A DNA stretch of 64,000 bases from Arcuatula senhousia. Its lineage: Eukaryota > Mollusca > Bivalvia > Mytilida > Mytilidae. The position numbers and the translations under genes are program-made. Shown here in pieces: positions 47,145 to 64,000 of the stretch. Positions within the stretch are counted from its first letter, which is position 1; each line of letters begins with the position of its first letter. The stretch spans positions 40,908,106-40,972,105 of the forward strand of contig OZ020303.1 of assembly GCA_963971305.1 (NCBI GenBank), given 5' to 3'. The notes beneath the pieces are model-generated. The model was not told the DNA's origin, did no database searches, and was given only the letters and a program-made list of their open reading frames with translations.

Positions 47145-50100
47145 TCATGAATTAAGTGGTCTACCTACTTTAAGTTTCTCAAATTTTTCCCTGTGATCTT
47201 TGGATGTTTTTGAGAAACTGCTCTTGACAATATTCAATGGATGATCCTTCCCTGTCAAATAAATTGAATTTTTCATTTGGTCAATACCTAAACTTGACAG
47301 AGAATATTGACCATTGAATGTACCATACTGTGCAATATATGTAGCTAAAATAAATCCAGTCATGAATGCGTCAAAACCTGCCCTATGGCTGCCTGATCTG
47401 ACAATCTCGCCAGGTTTGTTCAAAACATTAGATGTCAAGGTTAAGTTCTGGACAGAAGAACACTCACTTTTAACATCATTATCTTTAGAAATGTCCTCAA
47501 TTTCTTCTTGATTTTGAATGTCATCATCCTCTTGGTTTTTATCTTCTGTGTTTTGTTTACGTCGCTTTCGTTTTCTTTTTTTCCGTGTCTGGACGAGGTT
47601 GTCTAAGTCTAGAATGAGATCAATGTCATGTGACCTTTTACATTTTTTCCCAGCTCCGCACCATCCATGCCCCTAGAAATAGAATTAGATTATCATATTT
47701 TTGCTTCGAGTTTCAATTTTTTGGAGGCAAACTAAGGTAAATCTACAACTAATAACAGCACCTCAAGTTGGGTCATTATTCTAGTCTCTTTAAGCAAAAT
47801 TAGGCCTCTAATTTTGCATGACATGGGTAGTACTGAAATAGAATTTGAATCTAAAGACATAACTCCCTCTATATAGGTTAAATTAAAGTCCACAGTCCCA
47901 CACCAAAACCCCTACCCACCTGTGCCAAATTCAGGATGTAATTACCAGCCTTTTTGAATTTGACTTTTTTAGAGTTAAATCATAGTTATTTCAATATTAT
48001 AATAATATTATTCGATTTATTTTAAAGATACAAATTCCATCTTTCGTTTGTTTTGGCCTTTTGAGTTTTTTGCAGTTTAATATCTCTGAAGAGATTTTTA
48101 TAATCAAGGATAAAATGCTCTACAGATGAAATTTTGAAATTTTTACAATGTTTTGCTGAAACTTTGTTATTAACATTTCAATTTTTGACTCTTTTTACTA
48201 ACTTTGTGGCCATGCCAAATGGAAACTTACAGAGAAAACTTCACAAACTGAGTCTTTAAGGTCGTCTACTTGGTCAGCTTGTACATCTGTTAGATAGGAG
48301 GTGGGTAGTTTAACGCCACAAAGGATGACTTGGTCTGACATCTTGTTGTACGATGGTATATTTATTGCTGCATAGGATTGTTTTTTCTCAATTCCAAGGT
48401 AGTTGTCTCTTTGTCTGCAAATTACAGGTAGTGATTTTTGCAATGTACTAACTATTTCATATTATTTTTGTTATCCTTTATCAGATTTGACACACTGAAT
48501 TGACAGTTGGCAACCCAACCGGTGTGCTATAGCAAGCAGGAACTGCTTACTCTTTTGGAGCACCTGAGTTCACTTTTGTTATGACAAGAGTTCATGTTGT
48601 TAATTGATTTTCAGTAGTTTTTGTGTTTCGGTGTTCTACATTTTGTCTGTCCCGTTCTCATTGGTGTATACTGGTTTTGTCTCTATAAACCAAAAAATTA
48701 TTACAGTTAATACTTATGAATAAATTTATTGATATATTCGTCCTATAAATTTAGTAAATTAATATTTTTTCCGTGAAAATATTAAAAATTTGGCTAGTTA
48801 AATTGGTGTATTGATATTTACACTTGTCAATCACATTGCATGTGGGGTCCGTGCAACTGCAAAGTAAATAAATTTCATTGTTGTATTCCGGTTTAAACTA
48901 GATTTGATAATACTTTCTTAACGATATTAGGCATAGTTTATATTATCGGTAATCCGATCGAATTCTTTTGACTTTAAAAAGTTTACAAGAAAATAAACCC
49001 AATTTTCTTTCAATGCAAATGTATACTAACAATTTTCTAAAATTTCAATGTACAACGTTAGAAACCCGTGAAAACAAAAACTTGCTTAATAGTCATTAAG
49101 ATTCAATGCACCAAAATAAATATGTTCACAGTTCATGCAGTATATTCTTAAAATGAACATAAAAAATGAAAAGACAATTTTTTCAAAGGTGATGTCACAT
49201 GTGTTTCTGATAAATGTATAATATTATAAACTACATGTACATGTACTCATTAAGTAGGTGATATTTGGTGCTCACAAACCACAAAAATAATCTTCATGGA
49301 AAACTAACAAGGTTTCTAATTTAGGCCATAATGAAATAGTTAATGCTAGATTTTCATCCAATTTCTTGGAAATATTCGGTGGGAGGTCAATATTTTTTTA
49401 ACCAATTTGACAAAATATTCTGCCATTTCAAAGGAAATTGACCAAATATGAACATAATTTTGCAAAAATCAAAATAATTTTTTTTGAGGAGGTTGAAAAA
49501 ATAGGGGGAGGGGGTGAGAATCTAGAATATTTTTTTGTTGGCCTTACAGTTTTTTTTTTTCAGTCTGACTTTGTAAGGTATACAAACCTTCATTACAGTT
49601 AAGAAGAGCGAGAAATAAACCTTAAGGGTATTTGTTGCTTTCTACTATAAACACCTTTTTCTGAACACATATTCTAGGTATGATGCTGGCATTCTGTGCT
49701 GAAAGTCTGTGATGAATTTTGTATCAATAACTCCATTGGGGAACATTTCTGTGAGATCAGCCAAGAAAGTAGCAGAGGACGATGGGAGATTGGTGTACAA
49801 ATTCTGGTATAAAAACATTAAGTCCATCAAGGCATTATGAAAGACTACTGGGATTTCTGCTACTAATAAGCTGATGAATAGCTGTCTGAGGAATGTGGGA
49901 CCTTTAAAGTCTAGCTGAAATAAAGAATAGATACTATTACACATGTTACAAAGGATAGAATTTTTATTTTTAAGTATAAATGCATGGGTTTTTAAATAAA
50001 TGGAACATAAAGATGTAACAAATTACTGTAGAAGCAGAAATATCAGTGGGGGATTTAATTTTGTTTATTTTGTGGGTTAGAGAAATCCATGCAATTTAAT

Positions 50101-53100
50101 CCCACAAATTGAGAATATCTATTTGATGATTGTATATCAAAATTAAATAATATGCACAAAAATTTGTCCCCTCAAATTCAGTTTTGTGCTCTGAACGAAG
50201 AATTTTTATCCCCACGAAATTAAATGATTATACCTTAGTTAGCCATGCTTATACCCATGATCATTTTTCTACTTAGCATTTGATATTTTTAAAAAATCAA
50301 AAAGTCCTGATTCATAAGGATAGTTAACATGACTTGTTAAATAATGGATCCTACAAATCTCTCATAAAAATTCAATGTGTGAAAACTTAATATTTGTTAA
50401 TCCATCCGTGATTTATAATAAGATCAGTCAGATTTTCAATCAGTGAGTGAAACAATTTTTCAACATCAATTTTGAACACATACTAAATGAACTATATCTA
50501 AACTGCTTCATGGTATAAATGTAATATAACAAAGACTGCATATTTCAGTCTATTATGATTGGATGTTGTAAATTCTATGAACAACTTGCTTTAATTTATT
50601 AGCTTTGATTGTAACTAAAATCGAGAGAAAGCTTTATATTGTAGTCTATATTTGGAAAACTAAAAACCGTAGCCTTAATGATATCCAAAAAACAAAATAT
50701 TTTTTCATCCCCCTTTCCTTATGTTGTACATCTTGTACTTCCTCACTGAAAAAGATCAGCTATTTACACAGCAGTGCATCAAGTAATAAAACTCTTTATT
50801 TCAAAATAATCCAGTAAAACTATAGTATTATTTAATATTAGAAAATGTTTTTTAATATTAGAAAATCATAAATAGCTATTTTTGTCCACTTTGGCTTGCC
50901 ATATACTTTGGTTTTTCCTTTAAAATTGCAGAACATTCTATCAAAATGGATAAAAAATCAAAAATAAATTGGTCCCTACCCCATATTTTCAATAAATTTG
51001 GAAGAGAACCTAGGAATTATCTTTTATGGCCTTAGGGGCCAGTGCCCCTTTTGGTCCCCTTTGGAAAGACCAAGACCTCTTTTCTTAACCTACCCTATCA
51101 GGACCTCTATAATAAGCCACACCCTTGGAATACTACTTGTTGAAGTCGAACCCATGTTCCACCAAAAACTGCAGAGAAGATGGTTCAACAACATACTCAT
51201 CTTGGCAAAGGGAAGTAATATTGTATGTCTGTACTCCAAACTGCCACTTTTGAGTGGATTTTTTCTCTTTGTCTCCATCAACTTGCATATGGTCTTCATT
51301 TTCAAGTCGTGAACATTCGGAGACATCTTCCAGCTTAAAACATGACAGTCCAAGAGAGACAACTGATCTTGATTTGGCACTCTCTGACATAGATTTGTAT
51401 CTATCTTCTATTTGTCTTAAATGAAAACAAAAAGTAGTGTATTTTCACAGTTTGTTGTATTTATTCAGTCATAAACAATCTTTTGATCCCTGTAATATTT
51501 ATATTATATATATCATGTTTGTTTTATGAACTACTTGTGTACAAAAACTAGTAATGACCTGATTTCTTATTCTTTAGATAAAATGAATTTCTACCAAAAA
51601 ATTTAAACCTGACAAAAAAAACAGTTTTCCACTTAAGAAATAATCAAAGACATCCAGAGATTTCTAAATTTGAAATATAGCATTGCATTCCCTTTAGAAT
51701 AAACATTGTATTAAATGATTTTTGTAGAAAGCATATTTTTCAAAAAGACTGCATTAAATTGCATGGTTGCTAAATAGCCTGAGGAAGAACATTGATGTTC
51801 TACATGTTCATTCCATGCCGAATAAAGTTGCTGAGACATTTGAAATATTATGTGACCCAAGCCCTACACTATATGCCTCCTTTTCTTTCATAGATCGAGC
51901 ATAAAAAAAAATCCTATTGGAGTTAAATTCTGTTTGGGAAATGAAACTTACTTTGCATTCAATATTCTTCTGTCACCTATTCCACTAAGCTCCTAAAATA
52001 AAGTCTCAATCACATTGCAAAAATTATGACTTGAAAAATAGTCTTATAAAATCCTCATCAGAAGCATAATATTTCGGAATTTGAATACTGTGGATTCATT
52101 AATTTTCATGGGTATCAAGTTATGTAGTTACATAAAAAATGATAAGTTTGTGGATGTAAATTAATGGTTTTAAAATTTGCAGCATACAGATCAATGTTAA
52201 ATTTCCTTTTCATGATGTATCAAATTCCATGGGTCAAGGCCACCCATGAAAACCAAAAAAATTGATACCCCACAAATAATAACGAAACCACAGTAGCTAG
52301 AGTGTTTCCATTTGCGCTAGCCAAGGGTTAATATCCACTTTCTCTTATCTCTATAAGAAGATAAGAGATAGTGGATTGTAACCCTTGGCTAGCTAAGATA
52401 GAGTATTTCTGATGAGCCTCCTGTTTAAAAATTTTTGCCAAGCACTTTGTAACTGTTGTAATATTTTTTAAATTATTTTCTGATTCCATAAAAATTTGTT
52501 CTTGCTTTTTTTTATATGGTTAATTTGAAATTACCGTTTAAATAGATTTTTGACAGGTGTGTTTTGTGGTACATGTACATTTATTCCATTTACAAGGTAT
52601 TTTCTACATTAGTAAACTTTGGCCAAGGGATGAGAGACATAAAGATCCATAATTGGTCCAAAAAATGTAGTTGGTTCAAATATTATGATATTCATTTATA
52701 TCAACTTAAATGTGATTACAAAGAAAACAAACATTTTCTTAAAGTCTTATATTTGATCAGTTTTTCAGCGACTAAAGATATCTGTATGCTCAGGTTTAAT
52801 TTCATGGTTAATTTTGGGCCAAAAATGGGCCTTATTGCCACTCATACTTTCAAATATTAATAAAGTATCTCTAGCCTGACGTATGTGCTTTAGCAGGTGG
52901 TAGCTGCTTACTTTTGCAGAGCACCTGATAAAACTTAATGAGATGTGGAATAAGTGTACAACACAGCCTACAATCAAGTGGCAATTCAGAAAAACCACAA
53001 TGGACAACCGCCAGCAGCCTTCACTCTTTTTACAACTTGAGTTCGAATTGTTGATGGATATTCAGTTGTTTTTGTCTTTCTGTATTATGTATTGTCTGTT

Positions 53101-53408
53101 TTTGTCATGTTCTTGTTGGTGTTTACTGGTTCTGTTTCTGCCCTTTTGGACTTTTGACATTTGGATGCCCCATTAGTACCTATCCGTCTCTTATATATTT
53201 TATACATTAAATTTTCATACAAATATTGAAAGATCAAAATTTTACATCAAACATACATGTACATGACATATGCATGCAAGTTAAAACTTACTGTATCAAT
53301 AGCAACAAAAGTTGCAGATTTAAGAGCAAGCATAAGTGATGGCCATATTGTCTGTATGTTATCCTTGTGGACATCAATAACTGGCACTGTTTCAAAAGTA
53401 GCTGTCAT
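47145..53408 (-). CDS. TOE1: TOE1 orthologue (DEDD deadenylase / snRNA 3'-end trimming), one exon not located
   Basis: Placed coding exons in transcription order: 53408-53292 (ATG, 39 codons), 51992-51952, 51415-51137, [missing], 49914-49655, 48414-48231, 47672-47145 (TGA). Borders are GT/AG with matching phases, except that the step from 51137 to 49914 needs an unseen exon of 3n+1 nt; direct joining would give a stop. Landmarks: [20 protein letters not shown] and the DTE-SG catalytic motif across intron 1, CFKLED and [31 protein letters not shown], and [17 protein letters not shown] zinc finger spans exons 5-6 (C-x8-C-x5-C-x3-H, ending SHDIDL). A basic NLS ([10 protein letters not shown]) and a C-terminal [11 protein letters not shown] follow, the last supplying the final nuclease H/D as in human TOE1. 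Family knowledge: nuclear 3' exonuclease that trims snRNA tails. A polypyrimidine/CAG acceptor 10 nt before the ATG implies a separate 5' UTR exon. Confidence 0.92.
48486..48700 (+). repeat. Family R2, copy 3, in a TOE1 intron
   Basis: GGTGTGCTATAGCAAGCAGG, AACTGCTTACTCTTTTGGAG and CACCTGAGTTCAC are followed by GTCTGTCCCGTTCTCATTGG. It is the best-preserved copy of the 5' block of this family. It lies antisense to TOE1, in the intron upstream of exon 5. Confidence 0.65.
52316..52393. mobile_element. Foldback/MITE hairpin in TOE1 intron 1
   Basis: The arms GCTAGCCAAGGGTTA-ATCCACT-CTCTTATCT pair across a short ATAAGAAG-like loop, giving a stem of about 35 bp with three or four mismatches. The whole element is 78 bp. 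CTAGCCAAGGG also begins the left end of the 62-63 kb insertion, hinting at relatedness. Confidence 0.7.
52873..53190 (+). repeat. Family R2, copy 4, in TOE1 intron 1
   Basis: A diverged 5' block (GCTGCTTACTTTTGCAGAGC) is followed by ACAACTTGAGTTCGAATTGT, a GTTTTTGTC-rich middle and CCCTTTTGGACTTTTGACAT with TGGATGCCCCATTAGTACCT at the 3' end. A ~90-bp insertion separates the blocks. It provides the 3' end definition for the family. Confidence 0.6.
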
Positions 53409-53609
53409 TTTGTTCAATCTGAAAAAAAAAAAAAAACATATTATACATATTATCTGGTTATATTCCACATCTCATTATTTTCTATTATAACATTGTTTTT
53501 GTATTGACTTTATACATGTTATAACAAATTTGATACAGAAAATTATAATTTACAAAGTTTTAATTTCTAAAATAAGTATCAGAAAAAACGTGTAAAATCT
53601 CCTCAAAAG

Positions 53610-53770: not shown

Positions 53771-54537
53771 TTTTTAAAACCTCACATAGAAATTTCTACA
53801 AATTTGTGTAAAAGAACAAAAATGGGATATACTTTTGATTTTTATAATAAATTAAAACATGGGGTCACGGTAACTCCATTTGGAAACATTTAAGGAATAC
53901 TGAATTTTCTAATAAATTTCTTTGTAAAAATTAGTTACACTTTTTCCTGCCAGTTATCTCCCCTGAAATTAGATTTTTTGCTTGATATCTTTTGAAGTGT
54001 TTATCCTGTAAATTTTTTTATCAATAAATAATATGAAAATTATAGGCAGTGCCTAAATGCGAGCACAGCATAATTCTGTTCAATAAAAAAAAATTGATTT
54101 CGAAACGATGCAGTCAAATAAGATCTGAAACCATCATAGTTATTTTTGTTTTGGTTAATTTTCTAGAACGTTCAATTTGGGACGAAATCCTAGGCACGAT
54201 TCAACACTAAATAGAAAAGTAAGAAAAAATCGATTAAAATTTGGTTACTACAAAAAATGTAGCAACTTGTCGTCATCAGAATATTTTCTCTTTTTACATT
54301 AATAAATAGATAATTTTTTGGAATGTGACTAGCAAAATGGGTAATTATTTTCAAATACACTCTGTTCCTGTTAAAATTTGAGAGCCTTTCCGGACCATGA
54401 AAAATCAATATCAGCATTAGGCAAATTTTTCGCAGGAACAAATACCGTAGAGCTCTCCACTTGCGAGCTGTGCTAGCTATATTCTATAATAATAAAGAAA
54501 TAAATTTTATATCATTTATGCTGTAGCAAGTCTTTAA

Positions 54538-54922
54538 CCCTCTTGCTGCCAAAAGGACATATGTGTCCACTACCGGCTCGCTGCCAAAGGGACATATGTG
54601 TCCACTACCGGTTCGCTGCCACACGGACATATGTGTCCATCAGACCAAAATATTACATGCAACTAAATCATTCCTGATAATTAAACACACTCGTTCAAAA
54701 CATAAAAGAGCGGCATTTTATGACAGAAAAATATCTAACAAACAATATGGAATCGAATATAAAAGTTGTTTTCAATTTATTGTTACCGTAGCAACGTCAT
54801 AAATAAAAAAGACGTCATATTTCATCAAACATTGTCAAAGATCCTGGCGTATCGCTATTGTAACGTCACAACATTGTGGCGTTGGCGACGTCATTCAAAA
54901 TTTTAATATGGCAGCAAGAGGG
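54538..54922. mobile_element. TTAA-flanked MITE (piggyBac-like), 385 bp
   Basis: The element is bounded by CCCTCTTGCTGCCA and TGGCAGCAAGAGGG, perfect inverted repeats, with TTAA directly outside on both sides (54,534-54,537 and 54,923-54,926). A TTAA target and CCC-starting ends are the piggyBac hallmark. At its left end are three 35-bp tandem units starting at 54,545, 54,580 and 54,615, each with GGACATATGTGTCC. It has no transposase. The ORF at 54,563-54,802 is an artefact. Confidence 0.85.
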
Positions 54923-54926
54923 TTAA

Positions 54927-55189
54927 AACTGAAATAAAGGCAAAAAATTTGCAAGATGAATGAAAAAGATGCTCTGTTTTATAACCCCCAGCCTCCTTAA
55001 GGCTACAATATTTATTTCTAAGTTTTTCCAGGCCAGACTATTTATCTACAAAAACTGCCACTGGCTGTCGCCCATCTCTCGGAATCTAAATTTTGGTCAT
55101 CCCCTAAGCACAGGGGCTTGCCTACAGTAGAAAAATATATAATCCCTTCTGTGAGATATATTTTTGTGTGTGTTACTTTGTTACGCAAA
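54927..55189. other. Short non-coding gap before the retrotransposon
   Basis: AT-rich host-like sequence up to the point where G-rich gag sequence starts (about 55,190-55,200). No LTR, primer-binding site or gag N-terminus is recognisable here. Confidence 0.5.
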
Positions 55190-55195
55190 CACAAC

Positions 55196-55912
55196 ATGTC
55201 TTATTGGGAACTAGTTGAAAAACTGGAAAGGCGCTTTTGGTTTAGGGAGCTCCCAGAAACAGCTCAGGTGCAGTTTAACAATGCACGGCAGTCTCCGGAG
55301 GAATCCTTAGAGGACTGGGCGGACAGGGTCTTGTCCCTGGCCACCCGGGCCTTCCAGGACCTCCCGGAGGCCCACTTGAACCAGCAAGCAGTGGTAAGGT
55401 TCTGCCAAGGGGCAGTGGATAAAGAGGCGGGTAGTTATGCCTCTAACATTCGCCCACAAACTGTTGATGAGGCAATAGATAAAATGAAATGGCACCAACA
55501 CAATCACCAGGCCATTTATGGGCGCCCAACCCGGAAAGAGGTAAAGCAAATATCTGAGAGAGGGGATCATACCGACGGGGAGAAAAGCGTTTTTGCCCTA
55601 GGGGAGGGGATAAATTCCACAAGTCAAAAACATGAGAAACGGTTGGGGAGTTTAGAATCTGAAGTGGGGAGGCTTGCAAAAACAATGGAGGGAGTTCTCG
55701 AGGAACTCAAGAGGGGCCGGAGTGGGTGGTCCAGGTCCCAGTCAACGAGTCCCTCCCCTAGAAGGGAGCAGGGGTGTTTCCACTGTGGGGATCCGGGACA
55801 TTTCAAGAGGGAATGCCCGAAGCTCATGGGGTCACCGAAGGTAGAGAGGCGGGTCACATTCCAAGAACAACAGGGGGCTTTAAACTTCAGGGGGGCAACT
55901 CAAGAGGCCTGA
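55196..55912 (+). CDS. gag: Gag, N-terminally truncated, with zinc knuckle
   Basis: The first ATG in frame is at 55,196. The protein begins in the middle of a retrotransposon capsid domain ([13 protein letters not shown], then [20 protein letters not shown]), with roughly the first hundred-plus residues expected for this family lacking. A predicted coiled stretch ([20 protein letters not shown]) and an Arg/Ser-rich linker follow. A nucleocapsid zinc knuckle lies at 55,775-55,816 (C-x2-C-x4-H-x4-[15 protein letters not shown]). The frame closes with TGA at 55,910-55,912, after the slippery site. Gag packages element RNA in cytoplasmic particles; this copy could not make a complete capsid by itself. 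Confidence 0.85.
55879..55885 (+). promoter_or_regulatory. UUUAAAC -1 ribosomal frameshift heptamer
   Basis: The heptamer is in the correct register (U UUA AAC in the gag frame) and lies 24 nt upstream of the gag stop. Slipping back one base leads directly into the 4.4-kb pol frame (LQGGNSRG). U UUA AAC is one of the most efficient known -1 slippery heptamers. Confidence 0.85.
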
Positions 55913-58900
55913 GTGAGCCCCTCCAACCACAGAACGGTCTCAGCAAAGACAAAACCCAATCATTGACACAGGAAAAAACTGGGATATGGAAAACCCCGGA
56001 AGTGAGGGAGATTACCATGGAGGCCCCCGACTCGGGCCCCCTAGCCACAGTCAGGGTGATACAGGGGGGCGTGCCTGACCCGTGTGAGGGATGGGGCTCG
56101 CTAGCTGTCGACTCCCATGCCGAAGGGGGGTTCATGCTTCGGAGTGTAGGCCCGGAAGCGGTTACAGACTCTGATGACTCTGAAACTGAGTCTGACGGGG
56201 AGGGGGACGATACTATGGTTGGTATAGAGGTGGTGGGTCATACACTTGAAGGGCCCCACCCATTGAACACCCCGGAAGTCCCTGAGGAGCCCGTCTCCAT
56301 ATTGAAACTGTCCAATGGGGCAATGTTTAGGGTCCCTATTAGAGTCCAGGGGGTCCCTTTACAAGCAGTGGTGGACACTGCAGCTCAAGTCACATTGGTA
56401 TCTGAGGAATTTTACAAATCTCTAGATAACGCCCCACCCATACGTAGGGAAGTGGTCATGAACACCGCAGGCAAGGGAATGCAAATGAACGGGTTCATTG
56501 CAGGCCCCTTTGAGGTAGGATTGGGGTCGAAGAGTTTTTCGGTGGATTTGTATGTAGCACCGATCGGGGATGAAATGTTGTTAGGGCTAGATTTCTTAGA
56601 GCCACATGGGGTATCTTTACATCTCAAGGAGAGACATCTCCATATCAAGGATGAGATTATCCAGATGTCGTGGGGAAAGGGGGGCTCAGTGACTGAGGAT
56701 TGGGAGATAGGGGTGTCTTTGGTCCAAGGGTGTAGAGTACCACCCAATTCTGTAATGAGAATAGGGGCTAAACTGAGCAAACCCATTAAGGAAAACTTTA
56801 TCATCCGCGCTTGCACCACCGAACAGAATGTGCTAATTCCTCGAACCTTGCATAAAGGGGGGGAAGAACCGGTGGTGTGCTTGATCAACCCCACAGACCA
56901 TCACATTGAGGTAGGGAGGGGGTTGGTTCTCTCCTACGCGGAGGAGGTGCGGCCAGGGGAGGAGGAAATTATTGTCCAGCAGGTTTCCCGCGCGGAAGGG
57001 GAACTGCCAGGGGAAGGGGAAAAGGCCCTCCCAGAGCATTTGGCCGGGTTGTTCGAAAAATCAAGGGGGGAGTTAGCTGAACCAGAGCAACAAGCCCTCC
57101 GCGACCTCTTATGTGAATTTGAGGACGTTTTTGCAAAGAACGAGTTTGACCTGGGGCGTTTTGAAGCTATTCATCACACCATAGACACGGGGGATAATAA
57201 ACCCATTAAGCAGCGCATGAGGCGCACGCCCTTGGGGTTCGCAGGGGAGGAGGAGGCCCAGTTGAAGAAGATGTTAGGGGCGGGGGTGATCCAACCGTCG
57301 GTGTCTGAATGGGCCTCTGCGCCAGTTCTGATTCGGAAGCGTTGTGGATCGGTTCGTTGGTGCGTGGATTACCGTGCACTCAACGCTAAAACCACGAAGG
57401 ACGTTTTCCCCCTGCCTCTGGTGGAGGAGTGCTTAGATACCCTGGCGGGTAATATATGGTACTCTAAATTGGACGCCAATTCGGCGTATTGGCAGGTCAA
57501 AATTAAACCGGAGGATAGGCCCAAAACAGCGTTCATAACCAAGTATGGTCTGTTCGAGTTTGCCCGAATGGCTTTTGGCTTGTGCAACTCCCCAGCCACC
57601 TATGCAAGGGTTATTGACCTGGTCCTGAGGGGGCTGAATTGGAAGTTGGTCCTGGCTTTCTTGGACGATATCTTGGTCTTGGGGAGGGATTTTGATGGGC
57701 ACCTGGAGAATCTCCGTGCAGTGCTCATCAGATTCAGGGAATACGGGTTGAAGCTCAAGCCCAAGAAATGTGAACTTTTCCAGAAAAGGGTTGAATTCCT
57801 GGGTAGGGTAGTGGGACCAGAGGGGATGCAAATTGGTCCAGGCTACGTCCATGATATCGAACAGTGGCCACGGCCAACCTCCACTAAAGAGGTGGAGCGG
57901 TTCCTGGGATTCACCAACTACCATAGGGGGTTTATAAAAAACTACAGTCAATTAGCTCTACCCCTTCAGGCCCTGACGGGAAAAAGGTCCTACCAGTGGG
58001 GGGAGGAACAAGAAAAAGCATTCAAGGCCCTCAGACAGGCGATGGTAGAGGCACCAGTGCTCGCGTTGCCCAATGCCCATGATCCCTTCATCCTTGATAC
58101 CGATGCGTCGGACAAGTCAATTGGGGCAGAACTGCTGCAGGTGCAGGGGGGACAAGAACGGGCGGTATCATATGCCAGTCTGACACTGACCCCTGAACAG
58201 CAGAAGTATTGCACCACTCGTAAAGAGTTACTAGCTATTGTGAGGTTCACTCGCCAGTTCCGTCACTATTTAATGGGGAGGCATTTCACGGTCAGGACTG
58301 ATCACCACAGTTTGACCTGGCTCATGAATTTTAAGGAACCCCAGGGGCAACTGGCTAGGTGGCTTGAGGAATTAAGTCAATTCGACATGGAAATTCAGTA
58401 CAGGGAAGGAAAACGCCACACAAACGCTGACGCACTAAGCCGTCTTCCAGGGGGAGGGCCCTGTCCTGGGTTTAAAGTAGGGACAAAGCTTCAGGATCTG
58501 CCATGTGGGGGGTGTGCATACTGTACACGGGCTGAGAACAATTGGGCCATGTTCGACAAAGACGTGGACGATGTAATCCCACTTTCTCAAGGGAAGATAG
58601 CTACTGAGTCAGGGGTAACTCCAAGGGTATCAGAGGTGTGGGTTACCTCGGGGGATGTGGGCGTAAAGGTGCAGTGGGATCCATTGCCCAGCGTGGGAGT
58701 GGTCCGTGAGGAGGTGGGAGTTAGTTTACAGGGCCCGGGTAGTGCTGAACTTAAGGAGGGTCAACGGCAGGACCAAAATTTAACCTGGGTAATAAACTGG
58801 CTAGAAAACAACGTAGAGCCCAGGGAGGGGGAGGTGTTGGCCGGGGAGGCTCAATCGAAATATTATTGGGTGAATAGAGAGCTATTTGAGTTGGTGGACG

Positions 58901-60276
58901 GGATCCTCTGGAAGAAGGGGGATGACAAATATCCCCCAAGGCGGGTGGTACCCAAGGGGCTCCAAGCAAGAGTGTTGAGTCTGTGCCACGACCCTCCCCT
59001 AGCCGGACACCAGGGGATAGAAAGGACTACGGGGCGAGTAAAGGGAAGTTTTTATTGGAGGGGTGTAAGTAAAGATGTGGGCAGGTATGTCAAGGGTTGT
59101 TCGGAGTGCAACCAGAACAAGAAGGCAACGGTGGCTGCCCGACACCCAATGATCTCTTATCATGCGGGGGAGGTAATGGAAAAGGTACACCTTGATTTCA
59201 TAGGGCCCCTTCCCAAAACTGAACAGGGTAACGAACATATACTCATGATGATCGATCAGTTCACCAAGTGGGTAGAGTGCATCCCCCTGCCTTCCCAGGG
59301 GGCGGAAGAAACCGCTAGGGCTGCGGTGAATCAATTCTTCTCCAGGTTTGGGTGCCCTTTCCAGGTCTTCACGGACCAGGGCCGGAACTTCGAGTCTGCC
59401 CTGTTCAGAGCTATGTGTGACCTGTTGCACATCCATAAATCGCGGACCACGCCTTACCGACCGTCGGCCAACGGGCAAATAGAGCGCTGTAACCGGACGT
59501 TGATGGCTGCGGTTCGTTGTTTCGTGGGGAAAAATCAGAAGGTGTGGGATCAGTACCTCCCTCAACTGGGAGGGGCATTGCGAGCATCGGTAAATAGGAG
59601 CACAGGGTTCACACCTAACATGATGATGTTAGGGAGGGAGGTCAACCTACCGGCGGAGTTAATGTATGGGGAGCCGGGAGAGGGGAAGGAAGGGGACCCA
59701 GAACAGTATGTGGAAGGGTTAAAAGGGGCTTTGGAGGGGGCGCACAGTGTGGCGAGGGATAACCTGAAGTTGGCTCAGAGGCGTATGAAAAGGGATTATG
59801 ACGTAAAGGTGCGGGTGAGGGAGTACCTTCCCGGGGACCTGGTGTACCAGTTGGACACCGCAACCGTTAAAGGCAAAAGTAGGAAGTTAAGCCCATCTTG
59901 GAAGGGACCAGGGGTCATATTGAAGCGTATTACCCCCTATCTGTACAGGGTCAAACTGAAAAAAGCTGTATTTACGGCTAACCACGATAGGTTGAAATTG
60001 TGTGAAGACAGGGTGGTCCCCGTGTGGGCGCAAAAACTCAGCACCGAAGTTCGGGAGGGTAGGGTCAGTGAGGACATGCCCGAGGTCATGGTGGGTGGGA
60101 AGGTGTACTGTACTTGTAGGAGACCATGTCAGGGGAAGTTTATGGTCCAGTGTGAGGGCTGCAAGGAGTGGTTTCACGGTGGGTGTGTTGGAGTGACACC
60201 TGAGGAGGCAGAGAGTATGGGGGATTACATCTGTCCGGGGTGTCAGCTGCAGCCACGGTTCAAGTTGGACATGTAA
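55879..60276 (+). CDS. pol: Pol polyprotein: protease, RT, RNase H, integrase, PHD finger
   Basis: It is read in the -1 frame from the slippery site; the open frame extends upstream to a GTG at 55,774 but no ATG start is needed. The protease active-site region at 56,371 reads [11 protein letters not shown] (Ala where Gly is usual), with LLGLDFL at about 56,580. [13 protein letters not shown] at 57,352 and FLDDIL at 57,658. RNase H: LDTDASD at 58,093 through NADALSRL at 58,440. Integrase: an HHCC zinc domain ([10 protein letters not shown] ... CSECNQNK, 58,984-59,130), then catalytic D at 59,194, D at 59,374 and E at 59,482 (D,D35E spacing). A GPY/F-type module follows ([19 protein letters not shown], about 59,896-59,960). 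The tail is a PHD finger (60,103-60,249). All catalytic residues except the protease Gly are present. The stop is TAA at 60,274-60,276. Confidence 0.95.
55889..55922 (+). promoter_or_regulatory. Candidate frameshift-stimulating hairpin
   Basis: AGGGG at 55,889-55,893 can pair with CCCCT at 55,918-55,922, and CTCA (55,899-55,902) with TGAG (55,910-55,913). The spacer from the slippery site is 3-5 nt. This is the usual place for a frameshift stimulator. A pseudoknot with downstream bases is possible but was not worked out. Confidence 0.5.
60103..60249 (+). other. PHD finger at the integrase C-terminus
   Basis: Canonical Cys4-His-Cys3 order: [23 protein letters not shown], then YICPGC. The aromatic residue before the metal-binding His (EWFH) and the FMVQCE strand are like those of H3K4me3-reading PHD fingers of the PHF8/CFP1 type (family knowledge). 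It takes the place of the chromodomain found on chromovirus integrases, so guidance to modified histones is the natural inference. Confidence 0.9.
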
Positions 60277-60326
60277 GGGGTGCAGTCCACAAGGGGAATG
60301 AGGGGGATAATTATAGTTATTGTAAT

Positions 60327-60364
60327 CGGGCGCAGGGCTGTCTATTCAGGACACCCTGTGCCCG
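60327..60364 (+). promoter_or_regulatory. Stem-loop between pol and ORF3
   Basis: CGGGCGCAGGG (60,327-60,337) pairs with CCCTGTGCCCG (60,354-60,364) with one G-U pair. The stem extends as TGTC (60,339-60,342) with GACA (60,350-60,353) after one bulged base, giving a ~15-bp stem and a 7-nt loop. It lies 50 nt after the pol stop and directly before the polypyrimidine tract. The role is unknown; it could affect splicing, export or reinitiation. Confidence 0.75.
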
Positions 60365-60388
60365 GTTTTTTGTTTTTTTCTTTTACAG
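60365..60388 (+). promoter_or_regulatory. Splice-acceptor-like site at the ORF3 start codon
   Basis: A near-continuous T/C tract ends in TTTTACAG, and the next base starts the ORF3 ATG at 60,389. This is a textbook 3' splice site. It implies ORF3 is translated from a spliced subgenomic RNA, as env is in retroviruses. The donor would be in the lost 5' leader. Confidence 0.75.
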
Positions 60389-62028
60389 ATGGCAGATGTC
60401 TTAGAACTGGTGGACAGTGGGAGTGAGACCTTCCTCACTGCTGAGTGTGAGGAAGGGTACTCCTCGGCCGGGGAGGTGGCCGAGATAGTGGAGGAGGTGG
60501 AGGAGATGGCTTGGGTCTCCGAGGCGGAACAGGCTCCGGTACCGCTGGCCTCGCGGCCAGAGGGGGCTCTGGTACCACCGGAGCCTTCAACAGTGGACCA
60601 GCGGAGGCCCAAGAAGAAGAAGAACAGGGGGAGGAAGCGGAGCGGAGCCGCACGGAGGGCCAGGAGGGCAGAGGAAGAAGGACGCCGTGCGGCTGCGGTG
60701 GTAAGTGGGGGACATGGGGGGTCTTGGCCCTCTGTGTCGCCGAGTGGGGGGGGAGCTGGTGGAGAGGGGGCAGTTTGCCTGTCCCCTGATGCCAGTGAGC
60801 CCTCCTGGGTTCAGGGGCAGGGCAGAGGTGGTGGTGGTTTTGGGCTCCCCAGTTGGGTCGAACCCAAAACTGGGGCCGTCGGGGGAGACCGGGTGGTGTT
60901 AGAGGCATCACCCAGTAGCTCCTCCGACATGCTGTGTCAGATGGTGGAGTGTGGGGCGAGGGTCTTAGATCTCCGGGAGCATTGCCTTCACGAGCACATC
61001 CCGGAGATCTTCTCCAATCTGACCCAAGTGGGGGATGACCTGGGAAGGGTCAGGATGTCTGCCCTGCGGACTATCCTGAGGGTGTTAGGGGGGCCCGGGA
61101 GGGGCTCGTTTGCCTACGTGGCAGACTTGTTGGCTACCCTGGGAACCCTGGAGGGCCAATCCGTAGAACTCGAGGAGGTAGAGGCAATGAGGGAGGTATG
61201 TCAGGTGGGGGAATGGGAGATTCCTACGGAGTTCTCTCTGAACCCCCCTAACTCACCTGCAGTTCTTATGAACTGGAGGGCCCTCATTGAGACGCTGGGT
61301 CTCTTGCCTGTCTCCAAGAGGGAAGCGGTTCAGTCTCTCCGGTTTCCCAGGGGGTCAGGTAAGGTAGTAAGTCCTCGGAGTCCTCCGACAAAAAGGCTTA
61401 ACCAGAGTCTGTCGGAGGGATCTGAGGACCCGGCGCGAGTGGTGGTCCTGGCCAATGCACCGGTGCTCAAACGGGTCCTCAGTGGAGGACGGGACGTCCG
61501 ACCGAAGCCACAACCTCTGATGTCGCTTCGACTGGAACGGTCCCGGCCTGTTGTGCCCCCGCAAGCACCGGGAGTTGGTCGGGGTAAACCCAACCCCAGG
61601 GTAGGGGGAGGTGATCAGGAACCTCGGCAACAGACGGCCTGGGCAGGGGTTGAGCCTCCGGAATTGGTCCCACGTGGGATGGACTGCCATTTCCACCTGG
61701 ACCGGTCCCTCCGGAGACTCGGCCTCAGCCCCAGAACAGGCGTGGCCCAGTTCTTATCCCGTCCTCCGGTGCCCCCGCCTGTGCAGCCAGTTAAACTGGT
61801 GGGAGGGGTATTGGTGTACTGTGACCCCAAGACGTGGCCAGAAGACCCGGGAAAGGTGGCTCTCCCTCCAGGGTTCGTGATGGCAGTGGGAGTTCACCCC
61901 TCGCATGCCAGGGAGTTTGACGACGCGCGTCATGCTCAGCTGGAGCGACTGGTGAACTCACCGGCTGTTGCTGCCCTGGGGGAGATTGGGGTAGATTGCG
62001 GTGAGGGGGCGAAAGCCTTCGAGCTGCA
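60389..62028 (+). pseudogene. ORF3, 5' part: novel N-terminal region plus first half of a TatD-family nuclease
   Basis: It starts at an ATG right after the acceptor-like site. Residues about 1-60 are acidic (EIVEEVEEM). Residues about 70-100 are strongly basic (RPKKKKNRGRKRSGAARRAR), a likely nuclear-localisation or nucleic-acid-binding segment. About 100-180 is Gly/Pro/Ser-rich. About 185-320 is compact and probably helical (MLCQMVECGARVLDLREHC...), with no family I recognise. From about residue 430 a TatD-type TIM-barrel hydrolase begins: GMDCHFHLD (metal His codons at 61,688 and 61,694), VGVHPSHA, and LGEIGVDCG (metal Glu codon at 61,982). A transposon interrupts the ORF at 62,029, and translation then ends at 62,057-62,059. 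TatD proteins are Mg-dependent DNases with 3'-5' exonuclease and AP-endonuclease activities (family knowledge). Confidence 0.85.
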
Positions 62029-63093
62029 GGGGTTAAAAAATTTTCTAATACCTTACTAGCCAAGGGCTTATCGGCACTAGAAAACCACTAGCCCGACAGA
62101 AGGATCAACTAGCCCAAGGAAAATCTGACACTAGCCAAAGTATGATGCAAAGCTCAATCTATACATGTAGATTTGGTATTTATGTTATTAATTCTTTTTC
62201 TTTTATTTTATAAAAATGAATCAGATGCATTTATGTCGCTTTCAAAGTTAAAGAAAAGCAGGTAAATTCAAACAGGAACATTAAATCTTGTTTTAAAATG
62301 TTCCTGATTCAAGAAAGTAGGTAGCAGAATAACACAGATTGCAACAAGCTTCAGTTAGCTCGATGTCAGTGTGGCAGGGAATCTAGGGGGGACTCAGGGC
62401 CCCAGAGACTCTGGACATAAAAATTGCAAAAAATCCATCATCCTGGGGTTCTCTTGTACCTTCTTCACACCTTGGCACTTTCTTGTATAATAGAACACTT
62501 TCATAACAGTTTTTATGGCGTTTCAGTCCCCTATCATAATTTCCCCCTTAAAATAAATGTGGCCGTCGATCTTTTTCATTAAACTTTCAGACTGATTTTA
62601 AAATAAATTCAGGAGACTTTGACCTTTTTAAGAGTAAAACTACCTTTATTTAAGTTTGGAAAGGTGATTGTAATTGTCTATCATAATTTTCCTCCCAAGG
62701 AAATAATTAACCCAATGTGAAATCGAAAGTACGGGATATTGCACTTAAATCAATTGTACCACCCCCCAGTACCAGATAATGACGATGAAAATAGACTGCA
62801 CTGCGGGACATAGATTAAATCAATTGTGTTATCCCCCCTACCAGGCAATGACGATAAATTGCGAGACATGAATGATTTGGGTGATTTAATCAATAGTGAT
62901 ATCCCCCAGTACTGGTTAATGGCGATAATAATAGATCTAGGTTTTTCATAGTTTTATTTATAGCGCAAATTAAGTCAACCATAATTTTTAACTAGCCCGT
63001 CGGGCGTAGGTGGTTGTAACCTTTGGTAGCCCGAATATGATTTTCACTAGCCCCGGGCGTCGGGCTAGTGGATTTTTTAACCCCTGAGCTGCA
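62021..63093. mobile_element. 1,057-bp non-autonomous DNA transposon in ORF3, with 8-bp target duplication
   Basis: The element is 62,029-63,085. GAGCTGCA is duplicated at 62,021-62,028 and 63,086-63,093. Its ends are inverted: GGGGTTAAAAAAT at the left and ATTTTTTAACCCCT at the right, with subterminal CTAGCCCG/CGGGCTAG words repeated near both ends. An 8-bp duplication fits the hAT superfamily, but a CAGGG-start reading with a 5-bp duplication is also possible because the flank and the end share bases. It has no transposase and is AT-rich inside a G-rich host element. It was inserted after the retroelement acquired ORF3. Confidence 0.85.
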
Positions 63094-63568
63094 ATTAGGT
63101 ACCCTGCGGTGGGCGTTGGGGCTCTGTCTACCCTACAAGCCCTTGGTATTGCATTGTCGGGCCTCGGGAGGTAGCTCCCAGGCTTCTGCCGTGCTGTACC
63201 GTAGGCTGTTGGGGGTAGTTCAGGATAAAGTCCCGAACCGATTGCAGGGTATCCACCTGCACACCTTCACCGGCGACACTGCGACAGTCAAACTCTGGCT
63301 TGAGTCGTACCCAGAGACCTACTTTGGGTTTAGCCTCCTGGCTAAGGGGTGCGACGAGGGCCAGAGGCAGGGGATTCGGGCAGTACCGGAGGACAGGCTT
63401 CTCCTAGAGACAGACTCGCCGCACCTCGCTGACGCAGCTGCCTCCATCAACCATCCTGCACACTTGTTCAGGGTGGCGGAGGTGGTTGCCGAAGCCCGGT
63501 CCGCCCAGGCTCGGGACATACTGGCAGCGGGGGTGGCCAACGGGAGGGCCCTGTACCTCCGGCCCTAG
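63086..63568 (+). pseudogene. ORF3, 3' part: second half of the TatD-family nuclease
   Basis: It continues the TatD fold in the frame expected if one copy of the target duplication is discounted. It contains KPLVLHCRASG (metal His codon at 63,152), GIHLHTFTGD (His codon at 63,260) and RLLLETDSPHL (Asp codon at 63,413). These are the fourth to sixth metal ligands of TatD enzymes, and a closing helical region follows (HLFRVAEVVAEARSA). It ends with TAG at 63,566-63,568. Together the two parts hold all six family ligands, so the uninterrupted element should encode an active-looking enzyme. It has no start codon of its own. Confidence 0.85.
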
Positions 63569-63609
63569 GGGGTGTGTATGTCGGGGGAAGTGTACAAACT
63601 GGGGAGGGG

Positions 63610-64000
63610 AAATTTCAGATACAAACGATGGCCCCAGGGAGAAGGGGGCAGAAATAGGAAAAGTATAAGTAAATAGGCTGGTCCTGAAGAGATAGGACTA
63701 GCCGGGCAGTAGAGGGGAAGTTCAGATACAAAAGGTTGGCCCCAGGGAGAAGAAGTAATAGGCTGGTCCTGAAGAAATAGGACTGGCCGGGCGGTAGAGG
63801 GGAAGTTCAGATACGAACAGTTGGCCCCAGGGAGAAGGGGGCAGAAATAGGAAAAGTATAAGTAAATAGGCTGGTCCTGAAGGGATAGGACTAGCCAGGC
63901 AGTAGAGGGGAAATTCAGGTATAAACGGTTGGCCCCAGGGAGAAGGGGGGCAGAAATAGGAAAAGTATAAGTAAATAGGCTGGTCCTGAAGAAATAGGAC
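63610..64000 (+). repeat. Hairpin-bearing tandem repeats downstream of ORF3
   Basis: TTCAGATAC-type unit starts fall at 63,614, 63,721, 63,806 and 63,914, with spacings of 107, 85 and 108 bp; the short unit lacks a GGCAGAAATAGGAAAAGTAT block. Each unit contains GGCTGGTCCT, about 8 nt, then AGGACTAGCC, an RNA-stable inverted repeat (G-U pair), and GGCCCCAGGGAGAAG. The array runs to the window edge. It is probably the retroelement's 3' untranslated region before the polypurine tract and LTR. Confidence 0.85.

What the first reader, a model, noticed from the sequence alone, without database searches (positions are those of the whole stretch)
60389..63568. LTR retrotransposon carrying a TatD-family nuclease as a third ORF
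ORF3 lies downstream of pol, in the env position, and its C-terminal ~250 residues have the TatD hydrolase signature: HxH, LGEIGVDC, LVLHC, HLHTF and LLETDSPH, with all six metal ligands kept. TatD enzymes are housekeeping or DNA-repair nucleases, and I do not know of a described Ty3/gypsy element that encodes one. A retroelement nuclease could trim cDNA ends, remove abasic sites, process R-loops or act against host DNA sensors; these roles are inference. The N-terminal ~430 residues (acidic, then a basic NLS-like segment, then an unrecognised helical domain) look like a new fusion partner.
Basis: partly seen in the sequence, partly recalled or inferred. Interest (0 to 1): 0.92.

Follow-up and report, generated by a model that had tools for sequence, protein, structure and literature searches.

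The report
Jumping gene carrying its own nuclease
A virus-like jumping gene in an animal genome carries, after its usual genes, an extra gene for a DNA/RNA-cutting enzyme of the TatD family, and relatives in a mussel and a starfish seem to carry it in the same place, so the enzyme is probably a working part of the element and not a chance neighbour.

Summary
ORF3 is not one reading frame: a 1,057-bp insert with an 8-bp duplication splits the TatD domain. The copy is also 5'-truncated and no LTR lies in the window. It is dead.

That ORF3 is merely a host neighbour is disfavoured. A profile search finds 192 relatives. Among 120 listed pol relatives two run on into ORF3: P0217 (Acanthaster planci, integrase+PHD+zinc finger+helical+TatD) and P0195 (Mytilus, pol+PHD+ORF3 start). 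A strong splice-acceptor-like site abuts the ORF3 ATG.

My reading: an element-encoded accessory nuclease, made from a spliced mRNA, acting on element cDNA or RNA-DNA hybrids (role inferred). I saw no paper reporting TatD in a retroelement. New variant of a known kind: LTR elements with captured enzyme ORF3s. The own genome could not be searched; copy number, LTRs and dN/dS remain untested.

The parts
55118..55912 (+). gag, C-terminal half only: capsid C-terminal part and CCHC knuckle; similarity to gag-bearing relatives begins at 55,070-55,172
   Evidence: zf-CCHC E 2.2e-6; Retrotrans_gag E 0.0086, below its cutoff; tblastn
55774..60276 (+). pol, open for 1500 aa, in the -1 frame relative to gag: aspartyl protease, RT, RNase H, H2C2, integrase core, PHD finger (an SH3-like match at E 0.00016 is below its cutoff)
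60109..60243 (+). PHD finger at the C-terminus of pol (residues 1446-1490); nearest solved relatives PHF2 and BPTF PHD
60366..60388 (+). splice-acceptor-like tract TTTTTTGTTTTTTTCTTTTACAG directly before the ORF3 ATG; 18 of 20 pyrimidines
   Evidence: of YAG sites without AG in the preceding 20 nt, 2 of 501 on the plus strand and 8 of 543 on the minus strand have 17 or more pyrimidines; 1 of 47 in 55180-62032 has 16 or more, this one. Eight of 120 relatives show ...LF[ND][LF]FQ|M there
60389..62028 (+). ORF3, first half: acidic part, basic part, zinc finger, helical domain, linker, first half of TatD
60935..60997 (+). C2H2-like zinc finger of ORF3, C-x4-C-x9-H-x4-H
   Evidence: short strands then helix in a weak model
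61001..61342 (+). helical domain of ORF3 (zinc finger plus helical: 88 of 139 residues identical to P0001); no Pfam match
61673..62028 (+). TatD domain, N-terminal half, ligands H, H and E
62029..63085 (.). nested insert of 1,057 bp with inverted-repeat ends (CAGGGGTTAAAAAAT counted from 62027, partly overlapping the duplication) and 8-bp duplication GAGCTGCA; hAT-like by recalled hallmarks; splits ORF3
63086..63568 (+). TatD domain, C-terminal half, ligands H, H and D, and the stop codon; same frame as the first half
63604..64000 (.). tandem repeats of 85 and 108 bp downstream of ORF3, running to the end of the window; possibly the element's 3' untranslated region (inference)

Best explanation
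This is a dead copy of a PHD-integrase Ty3/gypsy element whose family carries a third gene in the env position. That gene encodes a nucleic-acid-directed TatD nuclease: acidic tail, basic segment, zinc finger, helical domain and TatD metallonuclease. ORF3 is made from a spliced mRNA whose acceptor abuts its ATG. The protein is most likely directed to nucleic acid by its basic segment and zinc finger, and acts as a metal-dependent 3'-exonuclease and AP/hybrid nuclease on the element's cDNA or RNA-DNA hybrids before or during integration, while the PHD finger tethers integrase to H3K4me3-marked chromatin. Shown: gene order, domain content, ligands, linkage in two gene models of relatives. Inferred: splicing, localisation, substrate, histone mark, benefit to the element. 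My odds: about 0.9 that ORF3 is a real gene of the element family, 0.85 that it is catalytically active in intact relatives, 0.35 for the cDNA/hybrid-processing role over other nuclease roles.
Against: No LTR was seen for this copy or for any relative. Only 2 of 120 listed pol hits (by Pfam column and by tails after the PHD finger) and 1 of 120 listed ORF3 hits were seen to span the junction; most PHD-pol proteins listed end 45-60 residues after the start of the PHD finger and tell nothing about what follows. P0217 and P0195 are automatic gene models; P0217 has a truncated PHD and no RT, P0195 stops before TatD, and BLASTP of the window's first half against P0195 gives only E 0.011. The P0065 frame test is only moderately strong (22.2 bits; 95th percentile of 200 shuffles 16.0, maximum 23.1; one of ten protein-frame tests). 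No dN/dS, transcript or biochemical test was possible. Six relatives have lost one or more ligands (P0003, P0015, P0025, P0028, P0032, P0034), as expected of dead copies but also of relaxed constraint. This copy is broken by the insert and by the 5' loss.
Confidence: 0.75

Rival explanations
1. ORF3 is a host gene of TatD type that lies by chance next to this pol copy.
For: Host genes have TatD domains (TATDN1-3). No LTR encloses ORF3 in the window. Exons of a host CAF1-type gene lie upstream on the other strand.
Against: The same order, pol-PHD then zinc finger (and helical domain and TatD in one), occurs in Acanthaster and Mytilus gene models. ORF3 has many diverged variants.
Confidence: 0.06
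2. ORF3 is element-encoded, but its main role is counter-defence: a 3'-exonuclease that trims or destroys host small RNAs or other silencing RNAs.
For: Human TATDN2 is reported as an RNA 3'-exonuclease and endonuclease (passages of PMC12709183). For bdelloid DEDDy ORF3s a role in silencing has been raised (passages of PMC5408684).
Against: No direct evidence. The zinc finger and basic part do not tell the substrate.
Confidence: 0.2
3. ORF3 is a captured passenger that gives the element no benefit and decays after each capture.
For: This copy and six relatives are broken or lack ligands. Evolution of bdelloid ORF3s within a genome showed no significant departure from neutrality (passage of PMC5408684).
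Against: Ligands and domains are kept at 35-42% TatD identity to P0217, P0094 and P0087, with the second linker much less conserved than the domains between the window and P0001. The association is seen in a mollusc and an echinoderm.
Confidence: 0.1
4. Compatible with the best explanation but about origin: the ORF3 family was captured more than once by different gypsy lineages, or exchanged among retroelements, rather than inherited from one ancestor.
For: In an integrase tree of 122 sequences the window groups with P0195, P0128 and P0122 (support 0.976), whereas P0217 is far away (distance 1.27). P0094 and P0087 carry a different N-terminal domain and have no pol in view. Bdelloid ORF3s are shared between retroelement classes.
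Against: The whole zinc finger-helical-TatD unit is shared, not TatD alone, which also fits one capture with losses. Deep nodes of the tree are weakly supported.
Confidence: 0.4

Closest known systems
Bdelloid rotifer LTR retrotransposons (Vesta, Juno) with DEDDy-exonuclease or GDSL-esterase ORF3 (PMC5408684; abstract and passages seen)
   Same: Retrovirus-like element with an enzyme gene as ORF3 after pol; ORF3s said to be typically expressed from spliced messages; nuclease type in some; shared among unlike elements
   Different: Here the nuclease is TatD (metal-dependent TIM barrel), joined to a zinc finger and a helical domain, with relatives in a mollusc and an echinoderm; the integrase has a PHD finger; the word TatD does not occur in that paper's main text
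TATDN2 of animals (PMC12709183; passages seen)
   Same: N-terminal extension followed by a C-terminal TatD nuclease; nucleic-acid substrate
   Different: Host gene described with a disordered N-terminal region; no TATDN2 sequence was at hand, so relationship was not tested
Chromoviruses (Ty3/gypsy with a C-terminal chromodomain on integrase; recalled)
   Same: Histone-reader type domain fused to the integrase C-terminus
   Different: The domain is a PHD finger close to PHF2 and BPTF, not a chromodomain
Ginger1 DNA transposons (PMC2836005; passages seen)
   Same: Gypsy-like integrase with extra C-terminal domains, in one family Ulp1 and PHD
   Different: DNA transposon with terminal inverted repeats, no RT described in the passages; no TatD in the passages seen

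Membership tests
Ty3/gypsy LTR retrotransposon | protease, RT, RNase H, integrase in this order | tested here: met
Ty3/gypsy LTR retrotransposon | gag with CCHC knuckle upstream of pol | tested here: met
   N-terminal half missing in this copy
Ty3/gypsy LTR retrotransposon | paired LTRs, primer binding site, target duplication | tested here: inconclusive
   No direct repeat pair flanks the element in 54000-64000; 5' end not found, 3' end beyond 64,000; own genome unreachable; primer binding site not searched
TatD nuclease (PF01026) | significant profile match | tested here: met
   both halves above the curated cutoff (30.6 and 64.4 bits against 27)
TatD nuclease (PF01026) | six metal ligands H, H, E, H, H, D | tested here: met
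   H,H,E in the first half and H,H,D in the second; positions by alignment to P0005, their role as ligands recalled
TatD nuclease (PF01026) | TatD TIM-barrel fold | tested here: met
   on relative P0094 only; the window's own half-domain model is weak and its best matches, TatD entries, have E 0.07 and above
TatD nuclease (PF01026) | nuclease activity | not testable with these tools
   needs a biochemical assay
Bdelloid-type enzyme ORF3 | DEDDy exonuclease or GDSL esterase domain | tested here: not met
   Pfam at E up to 1 lists only TatD in the two ORF3 pieces
Bdelloid-type enzyme ORF3 | enzyme gene after pol, expressed by splicing | tested here: inconclusive
   position met; acceptor-like site present; no transcript data
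Chromovirus | chromodomain at the integrase C-terminus | tested here: not met
   PHD finger there; no chromodomain among Pfam matches at E up to 1
Host TATDN2 gene | orthology to TATDN2 | not tested
   no TATDN2 sequence was available; nearest PDB sequences to the relative P0094 are bacterial TatD-type

The most novel reading that the evidence does not exclude
An ancient animal lineage of Ty3/gypsy elements, already present before molluscs and echinoderms parted, uses a histone-reading PHD integrase together with its own TatD nuclease. The nuclease clears RNA or damaged ends from cDNA at the integration site, so the element brings its own repair enzyme instead of relying on the host.
Probability: 0.25. 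Interest if true: 0.85.

Novelty: new variant of a known kind. Interest (0 to 1): 0.66.

Why it matters
If true, TatD joins the short list of enzymes that LTR retroelements have taken in as ORF3. It would give a natural test of what a TatD nuclease does for DNA made by reverse transcription, and so bear on the unsettled function of TatD and TATDN enzymes. It may explain some 'TATDN2-like' or 'BPTF'-named gene models in invertebrate genomes as retroelement genes (P0195 is one named BPTF). The PHD-integrase fusion is a candidate for histone-guided integration in animals.

Tried and rejected
Own-genome search: the genome search with where=own was sent ten times in the same form and never answered, so copy number, LTRs and dN/dS could not be tested.

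Public DNA: five scans of viral contigs that ran gave no relative. The one scan of genome contigs gave one locus, L001, a clam-symbiont record holding a different gypsy element (38% identity), without PHD by my pattern. I saw no TatD-like ORF in its listing but ran no family search on it. It was not used as evidence.

Matching contig lengths between the ORF3 and pol hit lists: compared by eye, no coincidence seen; uninformative because only the longest contig per cluster is shown.

Integrase tree: the PHD label in the script failed and marked every row as lacking PHD; only the topology was used. A repaired pattern marks 92 of 120 hits; it misses P0217, whose PHD is truncated, and others.

First motif script used too strict patterns and ended with an error; replaced.

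Frame test on four other ORF3 relatives (P0001, P0048, P0071, P0109): no signal; their upstream pieces are 15-39 residues and too short to reach a PHD finger placed as in the window.

Member counts per cluster (for example 119 for P0001) may be the same locus in many assemblies, so they were not taken as copy number.

Fold of the helical domain: the window model is weak there and the structure searches were filled by TatD-type folds, so nothing is said about its fold. The viral structure library gave one match at E <= 0.001, a Yasminevirus protein, not followed.

Donor lineage of the TatD domain: no tree was made, because TATDN1-3 and a broad bacterial set were not at hand as sequences.

Papers that led nowhere (passages only): giant squid genome, names a TATDN2 gene model in the Hox region; mosquito LTR paper, its PHD mention is a neighbouring host gene; Troyka elements, no PHD or TatD in the text; mollusc LTR survey, no PHD or TatD in the text.
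Full report
WHAT IS THERE. The stretch 56,001-62,000 has G+C 0.53, 0.53 and 0.61 per 2-kb block and 62,001-64,000 has 0.46, against 0.25-0.42 in the blocks before 56,000. It holds the C-terminal half of a gag with a CCHC knuckle (55118-55912), a pol open for 1500 codons (55774-60276, -1 frame relative to gag), and ORF3 (60389-63568). Pol has aspartyl protease, RT, RNase H, H2C2, integrase core and, at its C-terminus, a PHD finger (PF00628, E 2.1e-9). The finger's nearest solved relatives are PHF2 (E 1.6e-15) and BPTF (E 1.5e-14); that these read H3K4me3 is recalled.

ORF3 IN DETAIL. ORF3 has an acidic start, a basic segment, a C-x4-C-x9-H-x4-H zinc finger, a helical domain without Pfam match, a poorly conserved linker, and a TatD domain. 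The TatD domain is split by an insert at 62029-63085 (1,057 bp as set by the 8-bp duplication GAGCTGCA; inverted-repeat ends, 15 nt exact when counted from 62027 and 63086 and so overlapping the duplication by 2 nt and 1 nt). An 8-bp duplication with such ends fits a hAT-type element (recalled hallmark). The halves on either side lie in one frame, and both score above the Pfam cutoff. The six ligands are all present.

THE COPY IS DEAD. Besides the insert, the 5' end is not found. Gag-bearing relatives align to the window only from 55,070-55,172 onward (P0155, P0163, P0208), and no direct repeat in 54,000-64,000 brackets the element. The window stops at 64,000 in an 85/108-bp tandem array. That this is an LTR element therefore rests on its gag and pol, not on observed LTRs.

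IS ORF3 PART OF THE ELEMENT? A first protein search with the first half found 4 relatives; a profile of these and the window pieces found 192, of which 120 were listed. They are 90% clusters, and 45 of the 120 show the helical motif by pattern, so the family is rich in variants. Only one of the 120 carries an organism name in the list, P0094 from Argopecten irradians. A search with the pol C-terminus (residues 1240-1500) gave 145 hits, 120 listed; 92 of the 120 carry a PHD finger by pattern. Two of the 120 were seen to run into ORF3. P0217, Acanthaster planci, has H2C2, integrase core, PHD (truncated), then basic part, zinc finger, helical domain and TatD (E 9.1e-35) in one gene model. Its middle part matches the window's zinc finger and helical domain with a score of 87; the highest of 500 shuffles gave 52 (BLASTP E 6e-7). 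P0195, Mytilus galloprovincialis, named BPTF by its source, is pol with PHD followed by ...KVNLFQMDNN..., a basic segment and the zinc finger, and ends before TatD (58 against a shuffle maximum of 46; BLASTP of the whole first half gives only E 0.011). As controls, the unrelated N-terminal domains of P0094 and P0087 score 32 and 27, within their shuffles. From the other side, P0065 has 78 residues before the ORF3 start that are compatible, in the +1 frame, with the end of the PHD finger: 22.2 bits, where 200 shuffles gave a 95th percentile of 16.0 and a maximum of 23.1. This is moderate, one of ten protein-frame tests; the other four proteins, with 15-39 residues upstream, gave nothing and are too short to reach the finger.

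EXPRESSION. Directly before the ORF3 ATG stands TTTTTTGTTTTTTTCTTTTACAG. Among YAG sites without AG in the preceding 20 nt, 2 of 501 on the plus strand and 8 of 543 on the minus strand of the window have 17 or more pyrimidines of 20; this is one of the two, and the only one of 47 with 16 or more in the element stretch 55180-62032. Eight of the 120 listed relatives read through this point with ...LF[ND][LF]FQ|M. The pattern used demands F-Q-M, so the F-Q itself is by construction; the agreement of the residues before it is not. P0195 has NLFQM too. This fits a conserved pyrimidine tract and CAG before the ATG. Splicing is therefore likely, as stated for ORF3s of LTR elements in bdelloid rotifers (passage of PMC5408684), but not shown.

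CONSTRAINT. Ligand positions are kept in H1 37/39, H2 39/40, E 34/36, H3 27/29, H4 21/21 and D 14/15 of the sequences that align there with score 60 or more, among 120 hits, P0217 and the two window pieces. The departures are P0003 (three ligands), P0015, P0025, P0028, P0032 and P0034. Identity of the window to P0001 is 88/139 in zinc finger and helical domain and 71/116 in the first half of TatD, against 28/94 in the second linker, 27/63 in the acidic part, 10/26 in the basic part and 15/33 of the aligned first linker; the second half of TatD is 98/158 identical to P0005. That pattern fits protein-level constraint; it is not a dN/dS test, for which no relative DNA could be had.

PLACE AMONG GYPSY ELEMENTS. 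In an integrase tree of 122 sequences (120 hits, window, L001) the window joins P0195, P0122 and P0128 (support 0.976), while P0217 lies far off (distance 1.27); deep nodes are weakly supported. So the ORF3 family seems tied to more than one PHD lineage, by old inheritance with losses or by exchange. P0094 and P0087 carry a different, mutually related N-terminal domain (119 against a shuffle maximum of 46) and no pol in view.

HOW IT MAY WORK. E. [quoted passage not shown] coli TatD, TATDN1 and TATDN3 as having AP endonuclease activity, and TATDN2 as an RNase that resolves R-loops (passages of PMC12709183). An element that copies RNA into DNA, makes hybrids and may gather cDNA damage could use each of these. 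I favour action on element cDNA and hybrids, at odds of about 0.35 against other nuclease roles such as destroying silencing RNAs (about 0.2).

LITERATURE. Nine searches of the held library bear on novelty (TatD or TATDN2 with mobile elements or molluscs; PHD with gypsy or integrase; third ORF); a tenth was on TATDN2 function. No title or start of abstract shown reports TatD in a retroelement or a PHD finger on a gypsy integrase; some lists were cut at 15. The nearest are the bdelloid ORF3 paper (abstract and passages) and the Ginger paper (passages). Subscription papers and Repbase reports are not held, so the claim of novelty is limited to this library.

VERDICT. It is a new variant of a known kind.

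Noticed in passing
P0128 (pol relative), residues 1065-1234: A Tpt1/KptA RNA 2'-phosphotransferase domain (PF01885, E 4.2e-43) sits between the integrase and the PHD finger of a pol in the same small clade as the window's (support 0.976): another unexpected enzyme in this lineage, seen in one sequence.
   Followed up: partly
window 60109-60243: PHD finger at the integrase C-terminus, shared by 92 of 120 listed pol relatives by pattern, among them proteins named from bivalves, sea urchins and a gastropod; a possible histone-guided integration device.
   Followed up: partly
window 47148-53420, minus strand: Exons of a CAF1-family ribonuclease gene (TOE1-like by recall; PF04857, E 4.4e-21, 2.5e-5 and 4e-4 for three exons, the last below its cutoff); the exon nearest the element ends about 1.75 kb before the element's remaining 5' edge.
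   Followed up: partly
window 54533-54927: Short stretch with 19-nt perfect inverted repeats TTTAACCCTCTTGCTGCCA and TTAA at both ends, piggyBac-like by recalled hallmark, holding a 35-bp tandem repeat.
   Followed up: no
window 62029-63085: hAT-like insert inside ORF3 with inner repeats of ACTAGCCC and three copies of a 23-nt motif spaced by 70 nt.
   Followed up: partly
P0094 residues 24-118 and P0087 residues 31-130: A confidently predicted N-terminal helical domain in P0094, shared with P0087 (score 119 against a shuffle maximum of 46) and without match to the window's zinc finger-helical domain; function unknown.
   Followed up: no
P0123, P0133, P0222: Retroelement proteins deposited as bacterial MAG proteins (Sedimenticola, Ca. 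Thiodiazotropha), probably host contamination.
   Followed up: no
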